64,000 bases of DNA from positions 124,001-188,000 of the forward strand of contig NZ_LR215979.1 in assembly GCF_900683735.1 (NCBI RefSeq), in the 5' to 3' direction. Numbering within the stretch: the stretch's first letter is position 1; each line of letters begins with the position of its first letter. The translations under genes and the position numbers were made by a program. Of the stretch, positions 1,221-31,568 are shown in pieces. The stretch comes from Fusobacterium ulcerans ATCC 49185 (lineage in GTDB: Bacteria; Fusobacteriota; Fusobacteriia; Fusobacteriales; Fusobacteriaceae). Under the pieces are notes generated by a model. The model did no database searches, was not told where the DNA came from, and saw only the letters and a list, made by a program, of their open reading frames with translations.

Positions 1221-1277
1221 TAAATATATTATAATAAATATATTATGAAAATAAGTTTATCAGATATATATTTAAGA

Positions 1278-1307
1278 TTGACAAGAGAATTTTAAATGTA
1301 GTAGAAT
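1278..1307 (+). promoter_or_regulatory. Candidate sigma-70-type promoter of the sigma-54 regulator gene
   Basis: TTGACA (1278-1283), an 18-bp spacer and TAGAAT (1302-1307) precede the regulator by about 90 bases. The -35 is consensus and the -10 matches at 5 of 6 positions. Inferred from sequence only. Confidence 0.55.
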
Positions 1308-1394
1308 TACACTATAAATATCTATAAGACAAAATTTTAAATAAAATTACTAAAATAACCTACATTGAAGTATTTAAAATATCTAGGGGGAGAA

Positions 1395-2819
1395 ATGATA
1401 AAAAAGAATAAATTTTTCAATGTAGACCAGGATTTTATTAAAATCTTGGAGTCTTCATATGATGGAATTTATATAACAGATGGGGAAGCAAATACTTTAT
1501 ATTTAAATGAAGCATATGAAAAAATGACAGGAATAAATAGAGAAGAACTTGTTGGAAAGAACATGAAAGATTTAGTTAAAAATAAATTATATGATTCATC
1601 AGGTTCCTTACTTGTACTGCAAACAAAAGATAAGGTTTCATTAAGACAAAAAGTTGTAAAGAGCAACAAGGAGATACTAATAACAAGTACTCCTGTATTT
1701 CATGGAGAAGAGATAATTTATATAGTGACTAATGTAAGAGATATCAGTGATCTTTCTAGTTTACAAAAAAGATTAAAAAAAGTAGAAACATTAAATAAAG
1801 AGTATGAAGAAGCATTAAAGACTATGAAAAACCAGATGTATGGAATTATAAATAATGATGATGTAAGAAGTGATATAATGCTTCGCCTTGTTGAAAAAAT
1901 TTTGAAATTGGCAAAGATAGATGTACCATTAATGCTTGGTGGGGAAACAGGAGTAGGAAAAACATATTTTGCTAAATATATACATATGAACAGCCAAAGA
2001 AAAGATAGAGAATTTATCTCTTTAAATTGTGGAGCAGTTCCCAAAAATCTTATAGAAACAGAGCTTTTTGGATATGTACAAGGTGCTTATACTGGAGCTT
2101 CAAATAAAGGAAAAGTAGGTGTTTTTGAATTGGCTAATGGTTCAACTATATTCTTGGATGAAATAGCTGAATTTGATTTAGAAATGCAGGTAAAACTTTT
2201 AAAAGTTTTAGAAGAGGGAGAAATAAGAAGGGTAGGGTCAGATAAAAATATAAAAGTAGATTTTCGATTAATAACAGCAAGTAATAAGGATTTAAAACAA
2301 ATGGTAAAAGAAGGAAAATTCAGAGAAGATTTATATTATCGAATATCAGCTTTTCCAATAATTATTCCACCATTAAGGGAAAGAAAAGAAGATGTTTTAC
2401 AAATGGTATTATATTTTTTAGGAATATTTAATGAAAAATATAATATGAATAAATATTTCTCATATTCAGCTTTAGAGGAGTTGAAATCTTATTCATGGCC
2501 TGGAAATATAAGAGAATTAAAAAATGTAGTTGAACAGAGTTTAATTTTATCAAATGAAAATGAAATTAAATTTATTATATGGAATGAAAGAGAGGATAAA
2601 AAATCATATATAAACCAAGAGAACGAAAAGGAAGATGTATATATTGAAAATATAGAAAGACTGGTAATTGAAGGGGGATATTCCTTAAAAGAAGTAACAG
2701 AAAAAATTCAGAGAGATTTGATAAAAAAAATGTTGAAAAAAGAGAAAAAACAAAAAATAGTTGCTAAAATATTAAAAGTAGATGAAGCAACAATATCTAG
2801 AAAGATAAAAGATGCATAA
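1395..2819 (+). CDS. Sigma-54-dependent transcriptional regulator (PAS - AAA+ - HTH)
   Basis: A 474-residue bacterial enhancer-binding protein. A PAS sensor domain covers about residues 12-120. The AAA+ domain has Walker A at 182-190 (GGETGVGKT), the sigma-54 contact loop GAYTGA at 230-235 (the Tyr variant of GAFTGA) and Walker B IFLDE at 252-256. The C-terminus carries a Fis-type helix-turn-helix (KQKIVAKILKVDEATISRKI). The start at 1395 has AGGGGGAG just upstream; an in-frame TTG at 1365 lacks a ribosome site. It lies directly before an operon with a -24/-12 promoter, so it almost certainly activates that operon through RpoN, with the PAS domain sensing an unknown small molecule. The domain call is secure; the target is strong inference from position. 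Confidence 0.93.
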   Translation: MIKKNKFFNVDQDFIKILESSYDGIYITDGEANTLYLNEAYEKMTGINREELVGKNMKDLVKNKLYDSSGSLLVLQTKDKVSLRQKVVKSNKEILITSTPVFHGEEIIYIVTNVRDISDLSSLQKRLKKVETLNKEYEEALKTMKNQMYGIINNDDVRSDIMLRLVEKILKLAKIDVPLMLGGETGVGKTYFAKYIHMNSQRKDREFISLNCGAVPKNLIETELFGYVQGAYTGASNKGKVGVFELANGSTIFLDEIAEFDLEMQVKLLKVLEEGEIRRVGSDKNIKVDFRLITASNKDLKQMVKEGKFREDLYYRISAFPIIIPPLRERKEDVLQMVLYFLGIFNEKYNMNKYFSYSALEELKSYSWPGNIRELKNVVEQSLILSNENEIKFIIWNEREDKKSYINQENEKEDVYIENIERLVIEGGYSLKEVTEKIQRDLIKKMLKKEKKQKIVAKILKVDEATISRKIKDA

Positions 2820-2850
2820 ATGCAAGAAATTGCAAATATGCATCTTTTGT
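2811..2850 (+). terminator. Hairpin ending the regulator gene, possibly also an activator-binding site
   Basis: GATGCATA (2811-2818, overlapping the stop codon) pairs with TATGCATC (2837-2844), followed by TTTTGTTTTTT. Inside lies a second dyad, TGCAA-gaaa-TTGCA (2821-2834). ATGCAAGAAA recurs at 2868-2877. The position, about 100-150 bases before the sigma-54 promoter, is where enhancer-binding proteins usually bind, so the repeats may do both jobs. Confidence 0.6.
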
Positions 2851-2933
2851 TTTTTAAAATTGTATTTATGCAAGAAAAAATAAGTTGTGAAAAGAAAAAG
2901 TGCAGAATAGTGGGGAAATGAAAAAAATATACA

Positions 2934-2951
2934 TTGGCATAAACTTTGCTT
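2934..2951 (+). promoter_or_regulatory. Sigma-54 (-24/-12) promoter of the 4-hydroxybutyrate operon
   Basis: TTGGCATAAACTTTGCTT matches the RpoN consensus TTGGCAC-N5-TTGCW. The invariant GG (2936-2937) and GC (2948-2949) are separated by exactly 10 bases. Transcription should begin near 2961, about 30 bases before the first gene. The enhancer-binding protein gene lies immediately upstream. Confidence 0.9.
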
Positions 2952-2989
2952 ATTAATATGTCATAAAATAAAAATGGAGGAAGAAAATA

Positions 2990-4438
2990 ATGGCATTAAA
3001 AAGTGTTGAAGAGTATATTGAAAGTTTAAGAAAATTAAATATGGAAGTATATATGTTTGGAAAAAAAGTGGAAAATCCTGTAGATGATCCAATTATCAGA
3101 CCATCATTAAATTCAGTAGCAATGACTTATGAATTAGCTCAAAAAGAAGAGTATAGTGAACTTATGACAGCAAAATCTACTCTTACAGGTGAGATGATAA
3201 ATAGATTCTGTCATATTCATCACAGTACAGATGATCTTATAAAAAAAGTAAAGATGCAAAGATTGATGGGGCAAAAAACAGGAGCCTGCTTTCAAAGATG
3301 CGTTGGAATGGATGCAATGAATGCTGTATATAGTACTACATTCGATATGGATAAAGAATTAGGAACTGATTATCATGAAAGATTTTTAAAATTTTTAGAG
3401 TATGTTCAAAAAGAAGATTTGGTAGTAGATGGAGCAATGACTGATCCTAAAGGGGATAGAAATCTTTCACCATCTCAACAAAGCGATCCAGATTTATATC
3501 TTCGTATTATAGAAAAGAGAGAAGATGGAATTGTAGTAAGAGGAGCTAAAGCACATCAAACAGGAATAGTAAATTCCCATGAAGTTTTAGTTATGCCAAC
3601 ATGTACAATGAGAAAAGAAGATAAAGATTATGCAGTAGCTTTTTCAATTCCAGTAGATACACAAGGAATAAAAATGATTTATGGAAGACAATCTTGTGAC
3701 ACAAGAAAATTAGAAGCAGGAACATTAGATAGAGGAAATCCAAAATTTGGTGGTCATGAAGCTTTAGTAATATTTGATGACGTTTTTGTTCCAAATGACA
3801 GAATATTTATGTGCGAAGAATATGAATTTTCAGGATTGTTGGTAGAAAGATTTGCTGGTTTTCATAGACAAAGTTATGGAGGATGTAAAGTAGGAGTAGG
3901 AGATGTGTTGATAGGAGCTACTGCATTAGCAGCAGATTATAATGGAATTCCTAAAGCAACACATATCAAAGATAAAATAATAGAAATGCTTCACTTAAAT
4001 GAAACTCTATATTGTGCAGGAATAGCTTGTTCTTGTGAGGGGCATTCTACAGCATCAGGATCATATGAAATAGATATGCTTTTAGCAAATGTATGCAAAC
4101 AGAATGTAACAAGATTTCCATATGAAATAGCAAGACTTGCAGAAGATATAGCAGGAGGACTTTTAGTAACAATGCCTTCTGAAGAGGATTTCAAAGATGA
4201 AGTTTTAGGAAAATATCTAGATAAATATTTAAGAGGAAAAAATGAAGTTCCAACTCTTGATAGAATGAAAGTTTTAAGACTTATAGAAAATATAACTCTA
4301 GGAACAGCAGCAGTAGGATATAGAACAGAATCTATGCATGGAGCTGGATCACCTCAGGCACAAAGAATTATGATAAGCAGACAATCAAATCTTGAAAATA
4401 AAAAGCAGCTTGCTAAGGATATACTTGATATAAAATAG
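2990..4438 (+). CDS. abfD: 4-hydroxybutyryl-CoA dehydratase / vinylacetyl-CoA delta-isomerase
   Basis: A 482-residue flavin and [4Fe-4S] enzyme of the 4-hydroxyphenylacetate 3-monooxygenase fold. It converts 4-hydroxybutyryl-CoA to crotonyl-CoA in the cytoplasm. The cluster ligands known from the Clostridium aminobutyricum enzyme (Cys99, Cys103, His292, Cys299) appear here as C100, C104, H292 and C299, within the segments GACFQRCVGMD and FAGFHRQSYGGCK. The length matches the family (about 490). The start has AGGAAG upstream. It is the first gene after the sigma-54 promoter and is followed by a NifU-like protein and the CoA-transferase that would supply its substrate. The enzyme is oxygen sensitive in known cases, which fits an anaerobe. 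Very secure. Confidence 0.96.
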   Translation: MALKSVEEYIESLRKLNMEVYMFGKKVENPVDDPIIRPSLNSVAMTYELAQKEEYSELMTAKSTLTGEMINRFCHIHHSTDDLIKKVKMQRLMGQKTGACFQRCVGMDAMNAVYSTTFDMDKELGTDYHERFLKFLEYVQKEDLVVDGAMTDPKGDRNLSPSQQSDPDLYLRIIEKREDGIVVRGAKAHQTGIVNSHEVLVMPTCTMRKEDKDYAVAFSIPVDTQGIKMIYGRQSCDTRKLEAGTLDRGNPKFGGHEALVIFDDVFVPNDRIFMCEEYEFSGLLVERFAGFHRQSYGGCKVGVGDVLIGATALAADYNGIPKATHIKDKIIEMLHLNETLYCAGIACSCEGHSTASGSYEIDMLLANVCKQNVTRFPYEIARLAEDIAGGLLVTMPSEEDFKDEVLGKYLDKYLRGKNEVPTLDRMKVLRLIENITLGTAAVGYRTESMHGAGSPQAQRIMISRQSNLENKKQLAKDILDIK

Positions 4439-4459
4439 TTTAAAACTATTGGGGGAAGG

Positions 4460-4759
4460 ATGAAAAAAGAGAAAATTCAAATGATTATAGATACAGAAAT
4501 AACTCCATACTTAGAAACTCATAATGGAGGAGTAGAAATTCTGGAATTTGATGAAAAAATAAATAAACTTTCATTAAGGCTCAGTGGAAAATGTTGTACA
4601 TGTTCAAGTGCTTTGGACACAATAGAAAACTTAATAAAGAAAAAAATATATTCTTACTTCTCAGATATAGATATAGTTGTTGAAACAGGGGTATCTAATG
4701 AATTGCTGGAAATAGCCAAGAAGTATTTGAGGGAGAATAAAAATGAATTGGGAAAATAG
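4460..4759 (+). CDS. Stand-alone NifU C-terminal-domain protein (Fe-S scaffold/carrier)
   Basis: A 99-residue protein formed almost entirely of a NifU-like domain: HNGGVEILEFD at about 21-31 and the cluster-binding CxxC at C45-C48 (GKCCTCSS), with an extra Cys at 46. NifU/NfuA domains carry or transfer [4Fe-4S] clusters. The GGGGGAAGG upstream of 4460 supports the start. Its last 17 bases overlap the start of the CoA-transferase gene, so the two are probably translationally coupled. Placed directly after the [4Fe-4S] dehydratase, it may be a dedicated cluster-loading factor for that enzyme. The domain call is secure; the dedicated role is inference. Confidence 0.85.
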   Translation: MKKEKIQMIIDTEITPYLETHNGGVEILEFDEKINKLSLRLSGKCCTCSSALDTIENLIKKKIYSYFSDIDIVVETGVSNELLEIAKKYLRENKNELGK

Positions 4760-6035
4760 ATATAGTAATAAAATTGTAACAGCAGAAGAAGCATTGAAAA
4801 ATATAAAAGATGGAAATAGAGTTGTAGTAGGGCATGCAGCAGGAGAACCGCAATATCTCTTAAATGTATTAGCAGATAAAGCTGAAAATTATAAAAATGT
4901 AGAAGTGGTACATATGGTATCTCTTACAGAAAGCAGATACGCAGAAAAAATAGAAAATTTTCATCATAATGCTCTATTTGCAGGTAATTCAACAAGAAAA
5001 TTTATAAGTAAAGGAATAGCAGATTATACACCTAGTTTCTTTTATGAAATACCAAAGCTTTTTGATGAAGTTCTTCCAGTAGATGTAGCGTTAATACAAG
5101 TATCCTCTCCTGATGAACATGGGTTTGTAAGTTTGGGAGTATCAGTGGATTATACATTAAAAGCTGCAAAAAGAGCAAAAATATTAATTGCCCAAATCAA
5201 TAAAAAGATGCCTCGAACTTTAGGAGATAGTTTTCTTCATTTAGATGAAATTGATTTTATAGTAAAAAGAGATGAAGAAATATTAGAAATACCTCTTCCT
5301 AAAATAGGAGAAGTGGAAAAGAAAATAGGAGAGTATTGTTCAAGCCTTATCAATGATGGAGATACTCTTCAATTAGGAATAGGAGCAATTCCAGATGCAG
5401 TATTAACTTTTCTTGAATTAAAAAAAGACTTAGGAATACATTCTGAAATGATATCAGATGGAATATTGGAGTTAATAAAAAAAGGGGTCATAACTAACAA
5501 AAAAAAACAAACATTTGTGGGAAAAACATTGGTTACTTTCATAATGGGGAGCAGAAAACTTTATGATTATGTAGATAATAATCCAAATGTAGTTTTTTAT
5601 CCAGTAGATTTTGTAAATCATCCAATAGAAATTGGGAAAAATGATAATATGGTATCAATAAACTCAGCTATTCAAATAGATTTAATGGGGCAAGTAAATG
5701 CAGAGTCAATAGGTTATGATCAATTTAGTGGAACTGGAGGGCAAGTAGACTTTATAAGAGGAACATCTTTCAGTAAAAATGGAAGATCAATAATAGTTAT
5801 ACCTTCAACTGCTAGAAAAGGAAAAATATCAAGAATAGTACCAATTTTAGATGAGGGAGCAGCTATAACTACAACAAGAAATGATGTAGATTATGTTATA
5901 ACAGAATATGGAATAGCAAAACTTAAAGGAAAAACTCTTAGAGAGAGAGGAAAAGAACTTATAAATATAGCTCATCCTGACTTTAGAGAAGAACTTTATG
6001 AAAAATATAAAAAGAAATTTAAACTAGAAAATTAG
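4743..6035 (+). CDS. abfT: 4-hydroxybutyrate CoA-transferase
   Basis: A 430-residue family I-type acetyl-CoA hydrolase/transferase. It should move CoA from acetyl-CoA (or butyryl-CoA) to 4-hydroxybutyrate. The catalytic glutamate lies in GIHSEMISDG as E235, matching the Glu238 reported for clostridial AbfT. The preceding GIGAIPDAVL loop and the C-terminal ITEYGIAKLKGKT and RARELI-like region are typical. Its ATG lies inside the NifU-like gene in another frame, an arrangement that suggests coupling. Neighbours AbfD and 4-hydroxybutyrate dehydrogenase favour this substrate over plain butyrate or acetate, though the family alone would not decide it. Confidence 0.9.
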   Translation: MNWENRYSNKIVTAEEALKNIKDGNRVVVGHAAGEPQYLLNVLADKAENYKNVEVVHMVSLTESRYAEKIENFHHNALFAGNSTRKFISKGIADYTPSFFYEIPKLFDEVLPVDVALIQVSSPDEHGFVSLGVSVDYTLKAAKRAKILIAQINKKMPRTLGDSFLHLDEIDFIVKRDEEILEIPLPKIGEVEKKIGEYCSSLINDGDTLQLGIGAIPDAVLTFLELKKDLGIHSEMISDGILELIKKGVITNKKKQTFVGKTLVTFIMGSRKLYDYVDNNPNVVFYPVDFVNHPIEIGKNDNMVSINSAIQIDLMGQVNAESIGYDQFSGTGGQVDFIRGTSFSKNGRSIIVIPSTARKGKISRIVPILDEGAAITTTRNDVDYVITEYGIAKLKGKTLRERGKELINIAHPDFREELYEKYKKKFKLEN

Positions 6036-6043
6036 GAGGAGAT

Positions 6044-7432
6044 GTGAATTTACAAAAAGAAGTTTTATTTTACAATGAAGAAGCAGTAAATTCATTAGTA
6101 GAAGGAATTAAGAAAAAAAGTGTAAAAAAATCAGAAAAAGATGGAGCGCCATTTGGAAACGATGTAAAAGTGGCCCTAGAATATTTTTTAGATCTTGGGA
6201 AGAAAATGGGAATGAAAACAACTAACTATGATAATTATATAGGAGAAATAGAATTTGGAGAGGGAGAAGAAACTCTTGGAATATTAGGACACATAGATGT
6301 AGTTCCAGAAGGAAATAATTGGACTCATCCCCCATTCGCAGGAAAAATAGTAGATGGAAAAGTATATGGTCGAGGTGCTAGTGATAACAAAGGGCCAGTA
6401 ATAGCTTGTCTATATGCAATGAAGTGTTTGAAAGATCTCAATATAAAATTAAAGAAAAAAGTGAAACTTTTGATAGGATGTGATGAAGAAAATGATTGGG
6501 AATGTATAAAATATTATTTTGATTTTCTCAACAAACCACAGCCTGAGATAGCCTTTACACCAGATGCAATATTTCCTGTTATATTTTCAGAAAAAGGAAT
6601 TTTTCAATTTGATTTTATAAAAAGATCAGACGAATTCAGGGATATTTATTTGGATGGAGGAGTAGCAACAAATTCAGTACCAGATACAGCTAATATAGTA
6701 CTTAAAAATATTAATGAATCTAAATTAAAAAGTTCAATAGAAAAATATAATGAAAATAAAGAATATAAAATTTATTATAAGGAAATAGCAGAAGGGAAGA
6801 TAGAAATATTTTCTCAAGGAAAAGCAGCACATGGAGCTATGGCTGAAATGGGATATAATAGCATCCAAAATTTATTTTGTTTTTTAAAGCAATTTTATAC
6901 AGCTCAAAATGAAATGAAAAATGTAATAGATTTTTTTGATAAATATTTAAAAATGGATATAGAGGGGAAGGAATTAGGACTTAAATTTGTAGATGAAGAA
7001 TCAGGAGATTTAAGTATAAATATCGGGAAAATACATATTATAGACAATGAACTTAGAATATCTTTTGATGTGAGATATCCTGTAAAAATGAAATTAAAAA
7101 CTATTTTAGCTCAAATAAATAAAGTGAAAAAAGAATATGCTTTTGAGATGGAAATAATAAAAAATCAAATGCCTCTCTATAAAGAAAAAGATAGTTACTT
7201 AGTATCTACTTTACTTTCAATATATGAAGATGTAACAGGAGAAAGGGGAGTTCAGCCTATTTCATTAAGTGGAGGAACTTATGCAAGAGCACTAAATAAT
7301 TGTGTTGCATTTGGAGCAAGATTTAAAAATCAAAAGAGTGTGGCTCATCAAGTAGATGAATTTATGGATTTAGAAAACTTTAAGATGCTTTTAAAGATCT
7401 ATGTTGAAACAATATATAAATTAGCAAATTAA
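6044..7432 (+). CDS. M20 family dipeptidase (PepV/Sapep type)
   Basis: A 462-residue metallopeptidase starting at a GTG with AGGAGG four bases upstream. Zinc-site residues are H83 and D85 (GHIDVVPEG), D114 (GRGASDNKG) and E148/E149 (GCDEEN). The lid domain inserted between the halves and the length match PepV, which cleaves unactivated dipeptides including beta-alanyl-histidine in lactobacilli. Inside an operon for C4 hydroxy-acid metabolism a dipeptidase is unexpected. It could release 4-aminobutyrate from a dipeptide such as homocarnosine and so feed the pathway, but this is speculation. The PepV family call is secure. Confidence 0.88.
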   Translation: MNLQKEVLFYNEEAVNSLVEGIKKKSVKKSEKDGAPFGNDVKVALEYFLDLGKKMGMKTTNYDNYIGEIEFGEGEETLGILGHIDVVPEGNNWTHPPFAGKIVDGKVYGRGASDNKGPVIACLYAMKCLKDLNIKLKKKVKLLIGCDEENDWECIKYYFDFLNKPQPEIAFTPDAIFPVIFSEKGIFQFDFIKRSDEFRDIYLDGGVATNSVPDTANIVLKNINESKLKSSIEKYNENKEYKIYYKEIAEGKIEIFSQGKAAHGAMAEMGYNSIQNLFCFLKQFYTAQNEMKNVIDFFDKYLKMDIEGKELGLKFVDEESGDLSINIGKIHIIDNELRISFDVRYPVKMKLKTILAQINKVKKEYAFEMEIIKNQMPLYKEKDSYLVSTLLSIYEDVTGERGVQPISLSGGTYARALNNCVAFGARFKNQKSVAHQVDEFMDLENFKMLLKIYVETIYKLAN

Positions 7433-7453
7433 AATAAAACTGGGAGGAAAAAA

Positions 7454-7960
7454 ATGTCTAAAATTAAAAATGAAGGAAAAAATCAAGAAAAGGATGTTCA
7501 ATTAGTAAGGGGAGCAATAGAACAAAGAGCAGCATGGTTAGGACTTATGTATGAAGAAGCTAAAAAACAAGGTAAAGATATTGAAGATATAGCAAGAAAA
7601 GCTATATTTAAATGTGGATGTGTAAGAGGAAAAGGATTTGAATCTGTAATGAAAGATCATTCTATTCAAGAGTTTAAAAAAGCATGGTTAAATGAAAATA
7701 ATACAAGATTCTTTGAAATGGAAATAGTAGAAGACACAGAAGAAGCATTGAGATTATATTTCCACCATTGTCCATTGGTATCAGGATGGGTAAAACAAGG
7801 ATTTTCAGATGAAGATATAGAAGTACTTTGTGATATAGCAATGGATGGGGATAGAGGAATGGCCTCACCATTTCAAGATGAATTTACATTTGAATTGGGA
7901 AAAACAATAGCTCAAGGAAATTGTGTTTGTGAATTAAACTATATCAAAAATAAAAAATAA
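7454..7960 (+). CDS. L-2-amino-thiazoline-4-carboxylic acid hydrolase family protein
   Basis: A 168-residue cytosolic protein. It shows the features of the ATC-hydrolase family: an AxEQRAAWLGLMYEEA helix near residues 21-36, a LYFHHCPLVSGW segment with C106, the CDIAMDGDRG motif at about 126-135, and a C-terminal ELGKTIAQGNCVCEL with C157/C159. Characterised members open the thiazoline ring of ATC on the way to cysteine, but many homologues sit in other contexts and have unknown substrates. Here it lies between a dipeptidase and 4-hydroxybutyrate dehydrogenase, so a role on a cyclic or amide-linked C4 amine substrate is possible. The actual reaction is unknown. Confidence 0.75.
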   Translation: MSKIKNEGKNQEKDVQLVRGAIEQRAAWLGLMYEEAKKQGKDIEDIARKAIFKCGCVRGKGFESVMKDHSIQEFKKAWLNENNTRFFEMEIVEDTEEALRLYFHHCPLVSGWVKQGFSDEDIEVLCDIAMDGDRGMASPFQDEFTFELGKTIAQGNCVCELNYIKNKK

Positions 7961-7980
7961 AAATATATAAGGGGGAGCAA

Positions 7981-9090
7981 ATGGAGTTTTCTTTAAATTC
8001 TAAAATAGTTGAATTTAAAAATTTTGAAGAATTTAATAAAAAATTTTCTCTGGGAAAGAAAGATCTTATTCTAACTAATGAATTTATATATAATCCTTAT
8101 TTGAAAAAATATAATCTGGAATGTAGTGTAATTTTTCAAGAAAAATATGGAAATGGAGAACCTACAGATACTATGATAGATGCTATATTGAAAGATACAG
8201 CAGATAAGGATATTGAAAGAGTAATCGCTATTGGTGGAGGGACTGTAATAGATATTTCAAAAATTATTATTCTAAAAAATAGTGGAATATCAGCGGATCT
8301 TTTTATGAAGAAAATTGATATAGTAAAGGAAAAAGAGTTAGTGGTAATACCTACAACTTGTGGAACAGGAAGTGAAGTCACTAATATCTCAATAGCTTTT
8401 TTAGAAAAAGAAAATATAAAAATGGGACTTGCCGCACCAGAATTATATCCTGATTATGCAGTTTTAATTCCTGAATTTTTGGAAACACTTCCATATAAAT
8501 TCTTTTGTACTAGTTCAATAGATGCACTTGTTCATGCAACTGAATCATATCTTTCACCTAAAGCTACAGTTTATTCAGAAATGTTTTCAGAAAAGGCTAT
8601 AGAACTTTTGATAAATGGATTTAAATATATAGCTGAAAATGGAGAGGAATCTAGAAAAAATAAACTTATTGAATTTTTACAAGGAAGCAACTTTGCAGGA
8701 ATAGCATTTGGAAATGCAGGATGTGCAGCAGTTCATGCACTTTCTTATCCATTAGGAGGAAGATATCATATTCCACATGGAGAATCAAATCAATTAGTAT
8801 TTATATCTGTATTTAAAAAGTATAAAGAAAAGCAGCCAAATGGAAAAATAGAAAAATTAGAAGTATTTCTTGGAGAAAAATTAGGGGCGGGAAAGGAAGA
8901 TTCGCTTAATGCATTGGAAACATTGCTAGAGAAGATATACCCAAAGAAAAAATTAGAAGAATATGGGGTAGAAAAAGAATCATACAGAGAATTTGCAAAG
9001 GAAGTACTTGAAAAACAGCAGAGATTATTAGCTAATAATTATGTTGAACTTACAGAAGATGAAATAGTGGCAGTTTATGAAAATATATAA
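7981..9090 (+). CDS. 4hbD: 4-hydroxybutyrate dehydrogenase (iron-type alcohol dehydrogenase)
   Basis: A 369-residue group III metal-dependent alcohol dehydrogenase that interconverts succinate semialdehyde and 4-hydroxybutyrate with NAD(H). The nucleotide loop is GGGTVID (85-91). Metal ligands are D181, H185, H252 and H266, in SSIDALVHATE and AAVHALSYPLGGRYHIPHGE. The whole protein, including FILTNEF-like (here LILTNEFIYNPYL), YGNGEPTD and the IPTTCGTGSEVTN segment, closely resembles Clostridium kluyveri 4HbD as I recall it. GGGGGAG precedes the ATG. With the CoA-transferase and dehydratase it makes a complete path from succinate semialdehyde to crotonyl-CoA. No GABA transaminase or succinate semialdehyde dehydrogenase is present in the window. 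Confidence 0.93.
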   Translation: MEFSLNSKIVEFKNFEEFNKKFSLGKKDLILTNEFIYNPYLKKYNLECSVIFQEKYGNGEPTDTMIDAILKDTADKDIERVIAIGGGTVIDISKIIILKNSGISADLFMKKIDIVKEKELVVIPTTCGTGSEVTNISIAFLEKENIKMGLAAPELYPDYAVLIPEFLETLPYKFFCTSSIDALVHATESYLSPKATVYSEMFSEKAIELLINGFKYIAENGEESRKNKLIEFLQGSNFAGIAFGNAGCAAVHALSYPLGGRYHIPHGESNQLVFISVFKKYKEKQPNGKIEKLEVFLGEKLGAGKEDSLNALETLLEKIYPKKKLEEYGVEKESYREFAKEVLEKQQRLLANNYVELTEDEIVAVYENI

Positions 9091-9121
9091 TCTGGAGTAT
9101 TAAAATATTTAGGGAGGAACC

Positions 9122-10552
9122 ATGTGCCAAGCAGCAGCAAAAGCAGATAAAATGAAAAAAGTTAAAAAAGAAAAAGAATTTCCACATACATTTGTTGTTA
9201 TATTTATCTTAATAATAATAGCAGCAGTATTAACATATATAATTCCAGCTGGAGTTTATGAAAGAGTAAAAGATCCAGCAACAGGAAGAATGATAGTAGA
9301 TCCAGCAACTTATCACTTAGTGGAAAAAAATCCTACAAAATTATTTGGAATAGTAGAATCTATACCAAAGGGATTGATAGAAGCAGGATGGAATGTATTT
9401 TTAGTTATTATAATTGGAGGATCATTTACAGTAGTTGAAAAAACAGGAGCAATAAAAGCTTTATTAGGAAAAGTATTAGGTGGAATTAATGAACAAAATA
9501 CTTTTAGAGTATTGCCTTTTATCATGTTTACTTTTGCATGCGTTCCAGCATTTACTGGAAACTCTGAGTGTCTACTTGCTTTTGTTCCTTTAGGGATAAC
9601 AATAGCACGTTCATTGGGATTTGATGCTTTAACAGGAATAGCAATTGTAACAGTTTCTGGAACATCAGGTTTTGCCAGTGGATTATTTAACGCTTTAACT
9701 GTAGGAACAGCTCAAAGAATGATAGGTCTTCCTTTATTCTCAGGATTGTGGTTTAGAGTTATTGGATTTGCACTTTTCTTTGGAAGTGTATGTTTCTGGA
9801 CTATGTGGTATGCTAGAAGAGTAAGAAGCGATATGAAAAATAGTTATTGCTACAATGTAGAACTTACAAATAGTTCAATAGAAAGTGAAGAAATGCCTGA
9901 ATTAACAAAGAAAAATTTAATGATTATTGCAGTGGTTGTTTGTGGAATAGCAGGACTTATCTATTCAGCTATTAATGGTTATGAAGTAAAAACTACTTAT
10001 CCATCTATATTTATGATAATGGGAATGGTAGCAGGATTAGTAAGTGGAATGAACGCTAATGATATAGCTAAAGAATTTGTAGTTGGTGCTAAAACAGTTT
10101 TAGTAGGAGCTTTAGTAGTTGGATTTGCAAGAGGAATATCAGTTATTCTTGCAGATGCTCATATAATAGATTCAATAGTTTATGGTCTTTCATCAGTTTT
10201 AGTAGTATTTCCTAAAACTATTGGAGCAGTATTTATGTATATATGCCAACTTATTATCAACTGTTTTATAATATCAGGAAGTGGACAGGCAGCAGCTACT
10301 ATTCCTATAATGTCACCATTAGGAGATGTACTTGGAGTAACTCAGCAGACAGTAGTGATGGCATTTACTTATGGAGATGGACTCACAAATATTATACTTC
10401 CAATGTCAGCATCTTTAATGGGAGCCTTAGCAATAGGAAATGTTGAATACCCTCAATTTATAAGATTTATATCAAGAATATTTTTTACAAACTTATTAAT
10501 TGGAGCAGGTCTGATAGCTATTGCTTCAATGATAAATTTAGGACCTTTCTAA
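9122..10552 (+). CDS. yfcC: YfcC family (DcuC-like) membrane transporter
   Basis: A 476-residue inner-membrane protein with about a dozen hydrophobic segments, starting after a charged N-terminus (MKKVKKEKEFPHTF). The first membrane helix ends YIIPAGVYER, typical of the YfcC/C4-dicarboxylate anaerobic carrier family (which includes arginine:ornithine-type exchangers). Other family signs are the NSECLLAFVPLG loop and the second-half repeat ISGSGQAAATIPIMSPLGD. The AGGGAGG ribosome site supports the start at 9122. As last gene of the sigma-54 operon it is the likely importer of the operon substrate (an amino acid, dipeptide or C4 acid); which one is not visible in the sequence. Confidence 0.88.
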   Translation: MCQAAAKADKMKKVKKEKEFPHTFVVIFILIIIAAVLTYIIPAGVYERVKDPATGRMIVDPATYHLVEKNPTKLFGIVESIPKGLIEAGWNVFLVIIIGGSFTVVEKTGAIKALLGKVLGGINEQNTFRVLPFIMFTFACVPAFTGNSECLLAFVPLGITIARSLGFDALTGIAIVTVSGTSGFASGLFNALTVGTAQRMIGLPLFSGLWFRVIGFALFFGSVCFWTMWYARRVRSDMKNSYCYNVELTNSSIESEEMPELTKKNLMIIAVVVCGIAGLIYSAINGYEVKTTYPSIFMIMGMVAGLVSGMNANDIAKEFVVGAKTVLVGALVVGFARGISVILADAHIIDSIVYGLSSVLVVFPKTIGAVFMYICQLIINCFIISGSGQAAATIPIMSPLGDVLGVTQQTVVMAFTYGDGLTNIILPMSASLMGALAIGNVEYPQFIRFISRIFFTNLLIGAGLIAIASMINLGPF

Positions 10553-10570
10553 ATTTAATAAAATTAGAAG

Positions 10571-10609
10571 CAAGCTCAGTAATTTTTAATATAACTGAGC
10601 TTGTTTTTT
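10571..10609 (+). terminator. Rho-independent terminator of the sigma-54 operon
   Basis: CAAGCTCAGT (10571-10580) pairs perfectly with ACTGAGCTTG (10594-10603), followed by TTTTTT. It separates the operon from the M24 peptidase gene, although that gene begins only 18 bases after it, so some read-through could serve it. Confidence 0.9.
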
Positions 10610-10626
10610 ATAAAAGGAGATAACTT

Positions 10627-11715
10627 ATGAATAAAAAATACTTGGAAAAAATAAAAGAAAAATTATTAAAAAAAGATATAGATGCCATATTTGTAGCACC
10701 TTCAGAAGACTTAAAACTTTTATTAGGTTATTCTCCCCTTTCTATATCAAGATTTCAAGGGTTAATAATAAAGAATGATGGTGAAATATTTTATATTTGT
10801 AATCTTTTAAATAAAGATGAAATTAGAGAAAAAATTTCAAAAAAAATAAGGATATATTCATGGAATGATGGAGAAGATTATAGTCTTGTAACTAAAGAAA
10901 TATTTGAAGAGAATGGGCTTTTAGGAAAAAAAATTTTAGTAAATTCTACAACATTAGCAAAACATATAATAGAAATATCTGAAAAAATAAATATAAAATT
11001 TGTAAGTGAAGAGAAATTTCTAAATGATCTTAGGATAATAAAAACAGGGGAAGAATTAGAAAAATTAAAAATATCTTCTCAAATAACAGATGAATCCTTT
11101 AAAGAAATATTAAAATATATAAAACCTGGATTGACAGAATTAGCAGTAAAAAATAAACTTAAAGAAATAATAACAGAAAAAGGAGGGGTAAGTAGAAATC
11201 CTTTGGTATGTTTTGGAAAGAATACAGCTTTTCCACATTATAGTGAAACAAATGGAGTTTTACTAACAAAGGATATTGTTTTAATGGATTTTGGTTGTAT
11301 TTATAAAGGATATCATTCAGATATGACTAGAACTATTTTTATTGGTGGAATAACTCAAGAAGAAAAAGAAATATATGAAATAGTTTTAAAAGCAAACTTA
11401 AAAGGAATAGAAAAAGCAAAAGAAAATGTCAAGATAAAAGAAATAGATAATTGTTCAAGGGAGTATATTACAAGTAAAGGGTATGGAAAATATTTTACTA
11501 CAAGGTTAGGACATGGACTTGGGCTTTCAGTACATGAAGAGCCTGAAATAAGCTCCAAAAATAATAGAGAATTAGAAAAAGGAATGGTATTTACAATAGA
11601 ACCAGGGATTTATATAAAGGGTAAATTTGGGATAAGAATAGAGGATGCGATAGCTATAACAGAAAAAGGAGTGGAAGTTTTAAATAATTCTACTAAAAAT
11701 ATAGTTATACTCTAG
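10627..11715 (+). CDS. M24 family Xaa-Pro aminopeptidase/dipeptidase
   Basis: A 362-residue cytosolic metallopeptidase with a creatinase-like N-terminal domain and a pita-bread C-terminal catalytic domain. The dinuclear metal ligands are seen as Asp in LMDFGCIYKGYHSDMTRT (two Asp), His in GHGLGLSVHEEP, Glu in FTIEPGIYI and Glu in GIRIEDAI. The length fits PepQ/YpdF-like enzymes that remove N-terminal residues before proline. AAAAGGAGATAACTT gives the start. No separate promoter is obvious in the short gap after the operon terminator. With the PepV-like enzyme upstream it gives the locus a peptide-degrading flavour. Xaa-Pro specificity is inferred from the family. Confidence 0.88.
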   Translation: MNKKYLEKIKEKLLKKDIDAIFVAPSEDLKLLLGYSPLSISRFQGLIIKNDGEIFYICNLLNKDEIREKISKKIRIYSWNDGEDYSLVTKEIFEENGLLGKKILVNSTTLAKHIIEISEKINIKFVSEEKFLNDLRIIKTGEELEKLKISSQITDESFKEILKYIKPGLTELAVKNKLKEIITEKGGVSRNPLVCFGKNTAFPHYSETNGVLLTKDIVLMDFGCIYKGYHSDMTRTIFIGGITQEEKEIYEIVLKANLKGIEKAKENVKIKEIDNCSREYITSKGYGKYFTTRLGHGLGLSVHEEPEISSKNNRELEKGMVFTIEPGIYIKGKFGIRIEDAIAITEKGVEVLNNSTKNIVIL

Positions 11716-11737
11716 AGATAAAAAATATGAAAATTGA

Positions 11738-11771
11738 AAATCTGAATTATATTCAATATTCAGATTTTTTT
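11738..11771 (+). terminator. Rho-independent terminator after the M24 peptidase
   Basis: AAATCTGAAT (11738-11747) pairs with ATTCAGATTT (11758-11767) and runs into a T tract. Confidence 0.85.
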
Positions 11772-11826
11772 ATATACAGCAGAAAATATAGTTTTAGATA
11801 TAATTTAAGAAAAAATTAGTAAAATT

Positions 11827-30119: not shown

Positions 30120-31568
30120 TTACATCAGTATTGAAGCTATAGGATATCCCACAAAGATAGTAACTATTACTGCAACTGCCATAAAGATAAATCCATATTT
30201 AAACATATCAGTAGACTCTACCCATTCTGATCCAATAGCTATGGCAATGTGCGGCATAGCTGGAGGAGTAGCAAAAGCAAAAGCAGACATCATTCCAATA
30301 ATAGAAACAATTGCTGGAGCTGATACTGCTCCATTAGTTGCCTGCACCAAAGGAATAGCAACAGTAGTGACAACTGTAACAGTAACCATATTAGAAGAGA
30401 AGTTTGTCTGAATACAAGCCCATAGAGTAAATATGAGAACAAGAAGCATAGGACTTACTTCTTTTAATATAGGAGTCAAAGTTTCTACAAGATATTGAGC
30501 CAATCCTACATGTTGATTTGTCATAGCACTTCCTAAAGCCAGTGTACCAGCAGCCATTATAATACTTGACCATTGTACCCCTTTTCTCATTCCTTCAGCA
30601 AAATTCAATACTGGTTTTTCATCAAAAGACATTATAGAATAGCAGATAACTCCAAGCATAGGAGGCATAGCAGTTCCCATAGATGAGATTTTTTTGCATA
30701 TTACAGGAAAATAAGGCTTCAATATACTAGGAAGTACCCATAGGGCAACTATTATACAAAATACTCCAAGGATAGCTTTTTCCTTTTTCTCCATTGGTTT
30801 TATTTCACTCTTTAAAGAAGAAACATCTATATTTTTTATTTTTGTCATGTCGGGATTAAGAATAAATCTGAATATAAGAATTAGGAAAACTGTGCATATA
30901 ATTCCTACAGGAACAGCAAAAGCCATATATTCAGCATAGCCTATAGTCAATCCAGTAGCAGTAGTATAAAATCCCATAGCCATAATACTGAAGACATGAG
31001 CTATAGGAGTCATTCCAGCAGCAACAGATACACAAAATGCAAGGCTGATCATGAGCATTTTTCCTATTTTATCACCTTTTTTTAGCCCTAATATTTCATT
31101 GATTTTTTCTAGTATAGGAAGAAAAACAACAAACAATACAGATGGAGATACAAAACATCCAATAAATATTATTGCTGAAATAAAAGATATAACAAAAAGC
31201 CATGGACCTTTTTTAGCTATTGGGCTTGTTATGAATGAAACAGCACATCTTTTTAAAAATGGAGTTTCTGCTAAAACATAAGTACATAGAAATGTACACA
31301 TTAAAAAAGCAAAGGTATCATTTCCAAAAGAACTTAGAAAAACATTTTTAAATCCAATTTCTGGAATTAATCCTATTGCAGTTATGCAAAGCAAACTAGG
31401 CCAGTCAATGGCAACAGTAAGCCATAGTAATAAACTTCCAAGAAATATTCCTATTACATTCATTCCAAGTGGTTTCATTCCAACTGGAAGTGGAAGATGT
31501 TTTATAAACAAAATTAAAAGTAATGCAAGAAAGATACAAGAATATCTTTTTACACTTTTAGCAGACAT
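30120..31568 (-). CDS. SLC13/DASS-type anion transporter
   Basis: A 482-residue inner-membrane protein with about 12-14 hydrophobic segments. The repeated DASS-like halves are visible: the first-half motif around FGNDTFAFLMCTFLCTYVLAET and GCFVSPSVLFVVFLPIL, with AAGMTPIAHVFSIMAMG, and the second half QTNFSSNMVTVTVVTTVAIPL with FAFATPPAMPHIAIAIG. The family transports dicarboxylates, citrate or sulfate, usually with Na+. GAGGGGGA precedes the ATG on the minus strand. A consensus promoter lies upstream, and the gene is alone between two terminators. The specific substrate cannot be told. Confidence 0.87.
   Translation of the reverse strand: MSAKSVKRYSCIFLALLLILFIKHLPLPVGMKPLGMNVIGIFLGSLLLWLTVAIDWPSLLCITAIGLIPEIGFKNVFLSSFGNDTFAFLMCTFLCTYVLAETPFLKRCAVSFITSPIAKKGPWLFVISFISAIIFIGCFVSPSVLFVVFLPILEKINEILGLKKGDKIGKMLMISLAFCVSVAAGMTPIAHVFSIMAMGFYTTATGLTIGYAEYMAFAVPVGIICTVFLILIFRFILNPDMTKIKNIDVSSLKSEIKPMEKKEKAILGVFCIIVALWVLPSILKPYFPVICKKISSMGTAMPPMLGVICYSIMSFDEKPVLNFAEGMRKGVQWSSIIMAAGTLALGSAMTNQHVGLAQYLVETLTPILKEVSPMLLVLIFTLWACIQTNFSSNMVTVTVVTTVAIPLVQATNGAVSAPAIVSIIGMMSAFAFATPPAMPHIAIAIGSEWVESTDMFKYGFIFMAVAVIVTIFVGYPIASILM

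What the first reader, a model, noticed from the sequence alone, without database searches (positions are those of the whole stretch)
2934..10552. Sigma-54-controlled 4-hydroxybutyrate operon in a Fusobacterium-type genome
The -24/-12 promoter (GG-N10-GC exactly spaced) lies between a PAS-containing enhancer-binding protein and a seven-gene operon with abfD, abfT and 4hbD. RpoN control of a C4-acid fermentation in Fusobacteria is, to my knowledge, not described, and this operon also contains genes that are not in the clostridial version.
Basis: partly seen in the sequence, partly recalled or inferred. Interest (0 to 1): 0.75.

Follow-up and report, generated by a model that had tools for sequence, protein, structure and literature searches.

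The report
Sigma-54-controlled 4-hydroxybutyrate operon, apparently mobile
A gut-type Fusobacterium relative carries an inserted gene block that probably lets it ferment a four-carbon acid toward butyrate, switched on by a special sigma factor and a dedicated activator; nearly the same block sits on a fish-gut bacterium's plasmid.

Summary
A perfect -24/-12 sigma-54 promoter lies at 2934-2950, between a PAS-AAA+ activator gene and seven genes (abfD, nifU-like, abfT, pepV, ATC_hydrolase-family, 4hbD, DcuC/YfcC-family), and the genome has rpoN. The box is in all 10 fusobacterial abfD loci that have this activator next to them and in none of 8 that do not. Tandem TTGCA-N4-TGCAA sites upstream are a likely activator-binding site; they recur in clostridial relatives. 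The novelty claim is only partly right. Sigma-54 control of abfD-nifU-hyp-ach-golB by the activator XanR was predicted for Clostridium in 2019, and nifU is in that operon too. What the clostridial loci lack is the pepV-ATC_hydrolase pair, with a YfcC carrier in place of another membrane protein. New here: the block (1222-11782) occupies a site that is empty in related genomes; its activator and six of its seven operon genes are on a 664-kb Cetobacterium somerae plasmid at about 86% DNA identity; the genome has a second, different abfD operon with its own activator; and in Fusobacterium vincentii SB055 rpoN lies inside the equivalent cluster. The inducer and true substrate are unknown, and there are no expression data.

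The parts
1222..11782 (.). inserted block of 10,561 bp between a HAD-hydrolase gene and dnaE
   Evidence: Left flank matches the G026 empty site up to 1221, right flank from 11783. HAD and dnaE are neighbours in G026 and G027; in G028 a 492-aa transposase-like ORF sits there.
1395..2819 (+). sigma-54 enhancer-binding protein, PAS + AAA+ + HTH, GAYTGA loop; ortholog group of clostridial XanR
   Evidence: Pfam Sigma54_activat 1.6e-64, PAS 7.9e-12; loop; tree.
2812..2825 (+). putative activator site 1, ATGCATAAATGCAA (1 mismatch to TTGCA-N4-TGCAA)
   Evidence: overlaps the activator's stop codon.
2807..2848 (.). 42-bp near-palindrome holding sites 1 and 2; could also be a terminator hairpin of the activator gene
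   Evidence: sequence; 2820-2848 is 29/29 identical in Cetobacterium.
2830..2843 (+). putative activator site 2, TTGCAAATATGCAT (1 mismatch)
2860..2873 (+). putative activator site 3, TTGTATTTATGCAA (1 mismatch)
2934..2950 (+). -24/-12 sigma-54 promoter TTGGCATAAACTTTGCT; start inferred near 2961
2990..4438 (+). abfD, 4-hydroxybutyryl-CoA dehydratase
   Evidence: Best PDB match 1u8v, E 2e-233; C100, C104, H292, C299 aligned with the same residues there.
4460..4759 (+). NifU C-terminal-like Fe-S scaffold protein
   Evidence: PF01106 1.2e-14; missing from the Cetobacterium copy.
4743..6035 (+). abfT, 4-hydroxybutyrate CoA-transferase
   Evidence: PDB 3eh7 9e-156 and 3gk7 6e-140.
6044..7432 (+). 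PepV / Sapep-type M20 dipeptidase
   Evidence: PRK07318 PepV above its cut-off; PDB 3khx, 1lfw.
7454..7960 (+). ATC_hydrolase-family protein (PF14196), substrate unknown
   Evidence: Pfam 2.3e-20; no convincing PDB relative.
7981..9090 (+). 4hbD, Fe-containing 4-hydroxybutyrate dehydrogenase-like
   Evidence: Fe-ADH; best PDB match 30sm 'Cvir-Hbd2', E 1.8e-117.
9122..10552 (+). DcuC/YfcC-family membrane carrier
   Evidence: PF03606 8e-73.
10627..11715 (+). M24 aminopeptidase-like passenger of the insert; membership in the operon unclear
   Evidence: no match at E 1e-30 in 9 related genomes; homology to the Cetobacterium block ends before it, at 10553.

Best explanation
A sigma-54-dependent, activator-specific catabolic operon of the XanR-abfD type. 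The PAS-bearing activator binds tandem TTGCA-N4-TGCAA sites at about 2812-2873. On an unknown signal it uses ATP to open sigma-54 RNA polymerase at 2934-2950 (inferred from anatomy and conservation). The operon imports a C4 compound or a small conjugate of one (YfcC carrier; PepV and the ATC_hydrolase-family enzyme releasing it: inferred, weak). 4HbD interconverts succinate semialdehyde and 4-hydroxybutyrate, AbfT adds CoA, and AbfD makes crotonyl-CoA for butyrate formation; the NifU-like protein may help load AbfD's Fe-S cluster (assigned by family, not assayed). The block is an accessory insert that has moved between Fusobacteriaceae as a unit (shown: empty site, plasmid copy; direction inferred).
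For: rpoN is present. The box scores 11-12 of 12 in 10 of 10 fusobacterial abfD loci with the adjacent activator and at most 9 in 8 of 8 without it. In 70 scorable loci of 80 from named genomes, a box of 11 or more is in 18 of 24 with an activator within 6 kb and 5 of 46 without. Upstream sites: 15 of 22 box-bearing non-fusobacterial loci against 2 of 42 box-less ones. The window and Cetobacterium intergenic regions are identical at 29/29 (2820-2848) and 14/17 (box) but only 24/53 in the spacer. The activators form one group with clostridial abf-linked activators, 95/96 support with one unrelated long-branch row inside. The clostridial neighbours AMP-ligase, LuxE, LuxC match XanR's published second target. 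Enzyme identities. Mobility.
Against: No expression, footprint or growth data. The activator loop is GAYTGA rather than GAFTGA. Each upstream site in the window has one mismatch, and two lie in a palindrome that could be a terminator. No upstream sites were found in 3 box-bearing fusobacterial loci (L028, L033, L034). The operon has no gene that obviously makes succinate semialdehyde or 4-hydroxybutyrate. The ATC_hydrolase-family and PepV roles are guesses. The NifU-like gene is absent from the Cetobacterium copy.
Confidence: 0.82

Rival explanations
1. The operon is transcribed by sigma-70 polymerase; the activator acts like TyrR, independent of sigma-54, and the box is a relic.
For: Some fusobacterial PF00158 proteins have lost the loop (GAFLGA, GSFEGA, GTFIGA, GAFQGA), and Francke 2011 proposes sigma-70 dependence for the F. 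nucleatum one. The sigma-70-type scan finds many sites, as many as shuffles do.
Against: This activator keeps GAYTGA, rpoN is present, and the box follows the activator across lineages.
Confidence: 0.07
2. Regulation is as proposed, but the pathway is not 4-hydroxybutyrate fermentation of free GABA or succinate: it serves a peptide-like or sulfur-containing substrate, with AbfD handling a by-product.
For: The pepV, ATC_hydrolase-family and YfcC genes are kept together in two genera. In G009 ATC_hydrolase-family genes lie beside a serine-dehydratase/cysteine-desulfidase-like gene and an rpoN copy.
Against: abfD, abfT and 4hbD form a coherent 4-hydroxybutyrate set with strong matches to characterised enzymes.
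Confidence: 0.3
3. The second copy is a decaying, unexpressed insert.
For: It is absent from the syntenic site in related genomes, and the genome already has another abfD operon.
Against: All ORFs are intact, and the regulatory sites are more conserved than the spacer between the two genera.
Confidence: 0.06

Closest known systems
XanR / sigma-54 regulon abfD-nifU-hyp-ach-golB of Clostridium (Nie et al. 2019, PMC6615313)
   Same: activator of the same clade, -24/-12 box, abfD first, nifU-like second, CoA-transferase; the C. drakei locus L085 has this order
   Different: here pepV, ATC_hydrolase-family, 4hbD and a YfcC carrier replace the other membrane protein; no acp-caiC-luxEC beside it; different phylum; inserted and plasmid-borne
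4-aminobutyrate/4-hydroxybutyrate pathway of Clostridium aminobutyricum (AbfD 1u8v, AbfT 3gk7)
   Same: same dehydratase with Fe-S ligand residues aligned, same CoA-transferase family
   Different: extra genes and sigma-54 control; no transaminase or succinyl-CoA reductase in the operon
Second abfD operon of the same genome (C1:884653) and of G026, G027, G028
   Same: own activator, box (11 of 12), abfD-nifU-abfT order
   Different: 81% AbfD and 50% activator identity; followed by a membrane protein without a Pfam match and a 79-aa protein; no 4hbD, pepV or ATC_hydrolase-family gene
Cetobacterium somerae plasmid p1 block (NZ_CP143320.1)
   Same: activator plus six of the seven operon genes in the same order, 84-87% DNA identity, box 11 of 12
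   Different: no nifU-like gene; no M24 gene

Membership tests
sigma-54-dependent promoter | GG-N10-GC within TTGGCAY-N5-TTGCW | tested here: met
sigma-54-dependent promoter | rpoN in the genome | tested here: met
sigma-54-dependent promoter | transcription needs sigma-54 and starts about 12 nt after GC | not testable with these tools
   needs 5' mapping and a deletion
bacterial enhancer-binding protein | AAA+ domain with GAFTGA-type loop | tested here: met
   PF00158; GAYTGA, Phe replaced by Tyr. That Tyr is tolerated is recalled, not tested
XanR regulon | activator orthologous to clostridial XanR | tested here: met
   same supported group as activators of Clostridium loci whose gene order matches Nie's XanR targets; the XanR label is inferred from gene order, their sequences and supplement were not seen
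XanR regulon | same binding-site motif | tested here: inconclusive
   TTGCA-N4-TGCAA shared with clostridial loci; the published logo is a figure and was not seen
XanR regulon | target abfD-nifU-hyp-ach-golB | tested here: inconclusive
   abfD-nifU-CoA-transferase present; hyp absent, last gene replaced
4-hydroxybutyryl-CoA dehydratase | Fe-S ligands and fold of AbfD, not HpaB hydroxylase | tested here: met
   1u8v 778 bits against 134 bits for the best hydroxylase; C100, C104, H292, C299 (ligand roles recalled)
complete GABA-to-crotonyl-CoA operon | gene for GABA transaminase or succinyl-CoA reductase in the operon | tested here: not met
   none among the seven genes; rest of the genome not searched for it

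The most novel reading that the evidence does not exclude
In Fusobacteriaceae the abfD operon and its activator form a cassette that moves as a unit, in some lineages with its own sigma factor. In F. vincentii SB055 activator, promoter, operon and rpoN make one cluster. There the only intergenic exact box and the only intact-loop activator are both in that cluster, so sigma-54 may exist in that genome just to run 4-hydroxybutyrate fermentation. The window's block is the cassette form that relies on a resident rpoN.
Probability: 0.4. Interest if true: 0.68.

Novelty: new variant of a known kind. Interest (0 to 1): 0.5.

Why it matters
Fusobacteria are butyrate- and ammonia-producing gut and mouth bacteria whose use of sigma-54 is almost undescribed in the papers I could search. 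This gives a defined promoter, activator site and regulon that can be tested directly. It also suggests that C4-acid fermentation in the group is an accessory trait that moves with its own switch, which would explain its patchy occurrence (17 of 98 genomes). A sigma factor packaged with one operon would be an unusually small, self-contained sigma-54 circuit.

Tried and rejected
Considered and rejected: (1) that AbfD is an HpaB hydroxylase, as Pfam and NCBIfam labels suggest; PDB scores and the cysteine/histidine ligands say dehydratase. (2) That the box is a chance match. (3) That the M24 gene and dnaE belong to the operon; homology to the plasmid block stops at 10553 and dnaE is part of the empty site.

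Led nowhere: search for the M24 protein in 9 relatives found none, with no positive control; terminal repeats at the insert ends gave only short A+T-rich matches, so no mobile-element type can be named; no convincing PDB relative for the ATC_hydrolase-family protein; paper searches on that enzyme gave nothing on its substrate; base composition of the insert is only slightly lower than its flanks. The sigma-70 and terminator scans were no better than shuffles.

Caveats on counts: one search scored 70 of 80 loci; 10 had no abfD ORF left by my overlap filter (L084, L089, L106, L107, L117, L129, L135, L137, L142, L147). L127 was dropped as the same contig as L028. L036 and L021 hold two parts of one split gene. 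ORF starts are longest-ORF starts, which can misplace the scan (L122 scored 11 or more and 9 or less). Related sequences are not independent, so the Fisher value is too favourable. The activator-site motif was read from fusobacterial loci first; the other loci are the independent test. Shuffles kept base composition only; one search used a first-order Markov model and is weaker (67 of 20,000 reach 2 sites).

Full report
What is there. A perfect -24/-12 element, TTGGCATAAACTTTGCT, stands at 2934-2950; it begins 56 bases before the abfD start codon. Before it is a PAS-AAA+ activator gene (1395-2819); after it are seven same-strand genes up to 10552. The genome, one contig of 3,839,419 bases, has one strong rpoN. 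The exact pattern TTGGCAYNNNNNTTGCW occurs 12 times in it, the reversed control 0 times. In 11 of those 12 an ORF with a ribosome-binding-site-like stretch follows within 54 to 321 bases. The family is Fusobacteriaceae: genome G052, called same family as the window's genome, has the same 16,093-base contig as a record named Fusobacteriaceae.

Is it functional? Of 98 Fusobacteriota genomes searched, 17 have abfD and 48 have rpoN over the cut-off. I scored 18 fusobacterial abfD upstream regions, counting the window's. The 10 with an adjacent ortholog of the activator all have a box of 11 or 12 out of 12; the 8 without it have at most 9. Among 80 abfD loci from named genomes, 70 could be scored. 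A box of 11 or more is in 18 of 24 with an activator-like gene within 6 kb and in 5 of 46 without. PAS-activator, box and abfD therefore go together in Clostridium, Sedimentibacter, Anaerosalibacter, Lachnospiraceae and a Calditrichales genome.

Activator sites. Upstream of the box are three copies of TTGCA-N4-TGCAA with one mismatch each, at 2812, 2830 and 2860. The genome's second abfD operon has two exact copies (of 7 exact places genome-wide; control 1). In loci outside Fusobacteriota the motif is present in 15 of 22 with a box and 2 of 42 without. Between the window and the Cetobacterium copy, 2820-2848 is identical at 29 of 29 positions and the box at 14 of 17, while the spacer matches at 24 of 53. 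Against this: three box-bearing fusobacterial loci (L028, L033, L034) show no such site, and two of the window's sites lie in a 42-bp palindrome that could be a terminator.

Activator family. The loop is GAYTGA in the window and Cetobacterium proteins, GAFTGA or GSFTGA in the relatives read. In the tree, window and Cetobacterium activators are sister to those of the Fusobacterium core operon, F. vincentii, G038 and G016 (100/99). These fall with clostridial abf-linked activators at 95/96, though one unrelated long-branch row (L219) sits inside that group. In C. drakei (L085) the activator is preceded by AMP-ligase, LuxE and LuxC genes and followed by abfD-nifU-hyp-abfT-membrane protein. That is the gene order Nie et al. 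list for XanR (abfD-nifU-hyp-ach-golB and acp-caiC-luxEC; Table 1 and sections 7, 9 and 11 read; supplement and figures not seen). I therefore call the activator XanR-type; the label is inferred. Their EMSA set did not include abfD. A 2025 survey (PMC12316311, passages only) also notes COG2368, which includes this dehydratase, as sigma-54-regulated mainly in Clostridia.

Enzymes. AbfD's best solved relative is 1u8v of the GABA pathway, with its four cluster ligands in register (ligand roles recalled). AbfT matches 4-hydroxybutyrate CoA-transferases 3eh7 and 3gk7. The alcohol dehydrogenase matches 'Cvir-Hbd2' 30sm. PepV matches Sapep and PepV dipeptidases. The ATC_hydrolase-family protein has no convincing PDB relative, and its family occurs in only 5 of 98 Fusobacteriota genomes. 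None of the 80 named abfD loci has a match to PepV or the ATC_hydrolase protein; one (L108) has a 31%-identical YfcC-type carrier beside its activator.

An inserted, shared block. In G026 and G027 the genes on either side of the block (HAD hydrolase and dnaE) are neighbours; in G028 a 492-aa transposase-like ORF occupies the gap. The flanks match G026 up to 1221 and from 11783. The activator and the operon without the nifU-like gene lie on the 664-kb plasmid p1 of Cetobacterium somerae from catfish intestine. DNA identity is 84-87%, starting at 1393 and ending at 10553, the ends of the coding block. Protein identities are 83-95%. The plasmid has no rpoN; the Cetobacterium chromosome was not examined. 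Direction and vehicle of transfer are not known.

Two operons in one genome. A second abfD operon at C1:884653 (AbfD 81%, activator 50% identical) matches that of G026, G027 and G028. It ends in a membrane protein with 8 hydropathy-predicted spans and no Pfam match, and a 79-aa protein. The AbfD tree puts window plus Cetobacterium within the fusobacterial set of 9 (99), separate from the core copies.

rpoN in the cluster. In F. vincentii SB055 (record NZ_CP084075.1) the order is activator-abfD-nifU-abfT-membrane protein-79-aa-type protein-rpoN. The other two strong PF00158 proteins there have broken loops, GAFLGA and GSFEGA; a fourth match is weak (E 1.9e-6). Two of the record's three exact boxes lie inside ORFs. 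Francke 2011 (passages) reports no sigma-54 in F. nucleatum ATCC 25586. In G038 rpoN is next to the activator; its genus-mate G037 has neither rpoN nor abfD. Against a general rule: many fusobacteria have rpoN without abfD.

Literature on novelty: searches (listings only) showed no paper on sigma-54 control of 4-hydroxybutyrate genes in Fusobacteria. Most subscription papers are not held, so this is weak evidence of absence.

Verdict. It is a new variant of a predicted clostridial regulon, not a new kind. The mobile block and the rpoN-bearing cluster are the more surprising parts.

Noticed in passing
L168:6342-14081 (F. vincentii SB055, NZ_CP084075.1): activator, abfD, nifU, abfT, membrane protein, small protein and rpoN in one cluster with a perfect box; the 2.1-Mb record is labelled a plasmid but is chromosome-sized.
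   Followed up: partly
L022:7496-13915 (G000:C1, around 884653): second abfD operon in the same genome with its own activator and an 11/12 box.
   Followed up: yes
L068:3271-10925 and L069:3408-9161: rpoN-like gene, activator and ATC_hydrolase-family gene(s) with carrier and dehydrogenase-like genes in one cluster in two Fusobacteriaceae without abfD: another rpoN-plus-target arrangement.
   Followed up: partly
L164:2473-3951: a transposase-like ORF occupies, in G028, the same HAD-dnaE gap that holds the window's insert, so this gap seems to accept insertions repeatedly.
   Followed up: partly
L108:2625-9697: Lachnospiraceae abfD-abfT with activator, a YfcC-type carrier and an amidohydrolase on the other strand: independent link of this carrier type to an abfD cluster.
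   Followed up: no
window 31376-31389: one of the genome's 7 exact TTGCA-N4-TGCAA sites lies inside an ORF (30120-31568, - strand), far from any abfD gene; probably chance.
   Followed up: no
L065, L066, L063, L058, L062, L064: other exact sigma-54 boxes in this genome precede genes that by eye look like carriers and amino-acid catabolic enzymes; names not searched.
   Followed up: partly
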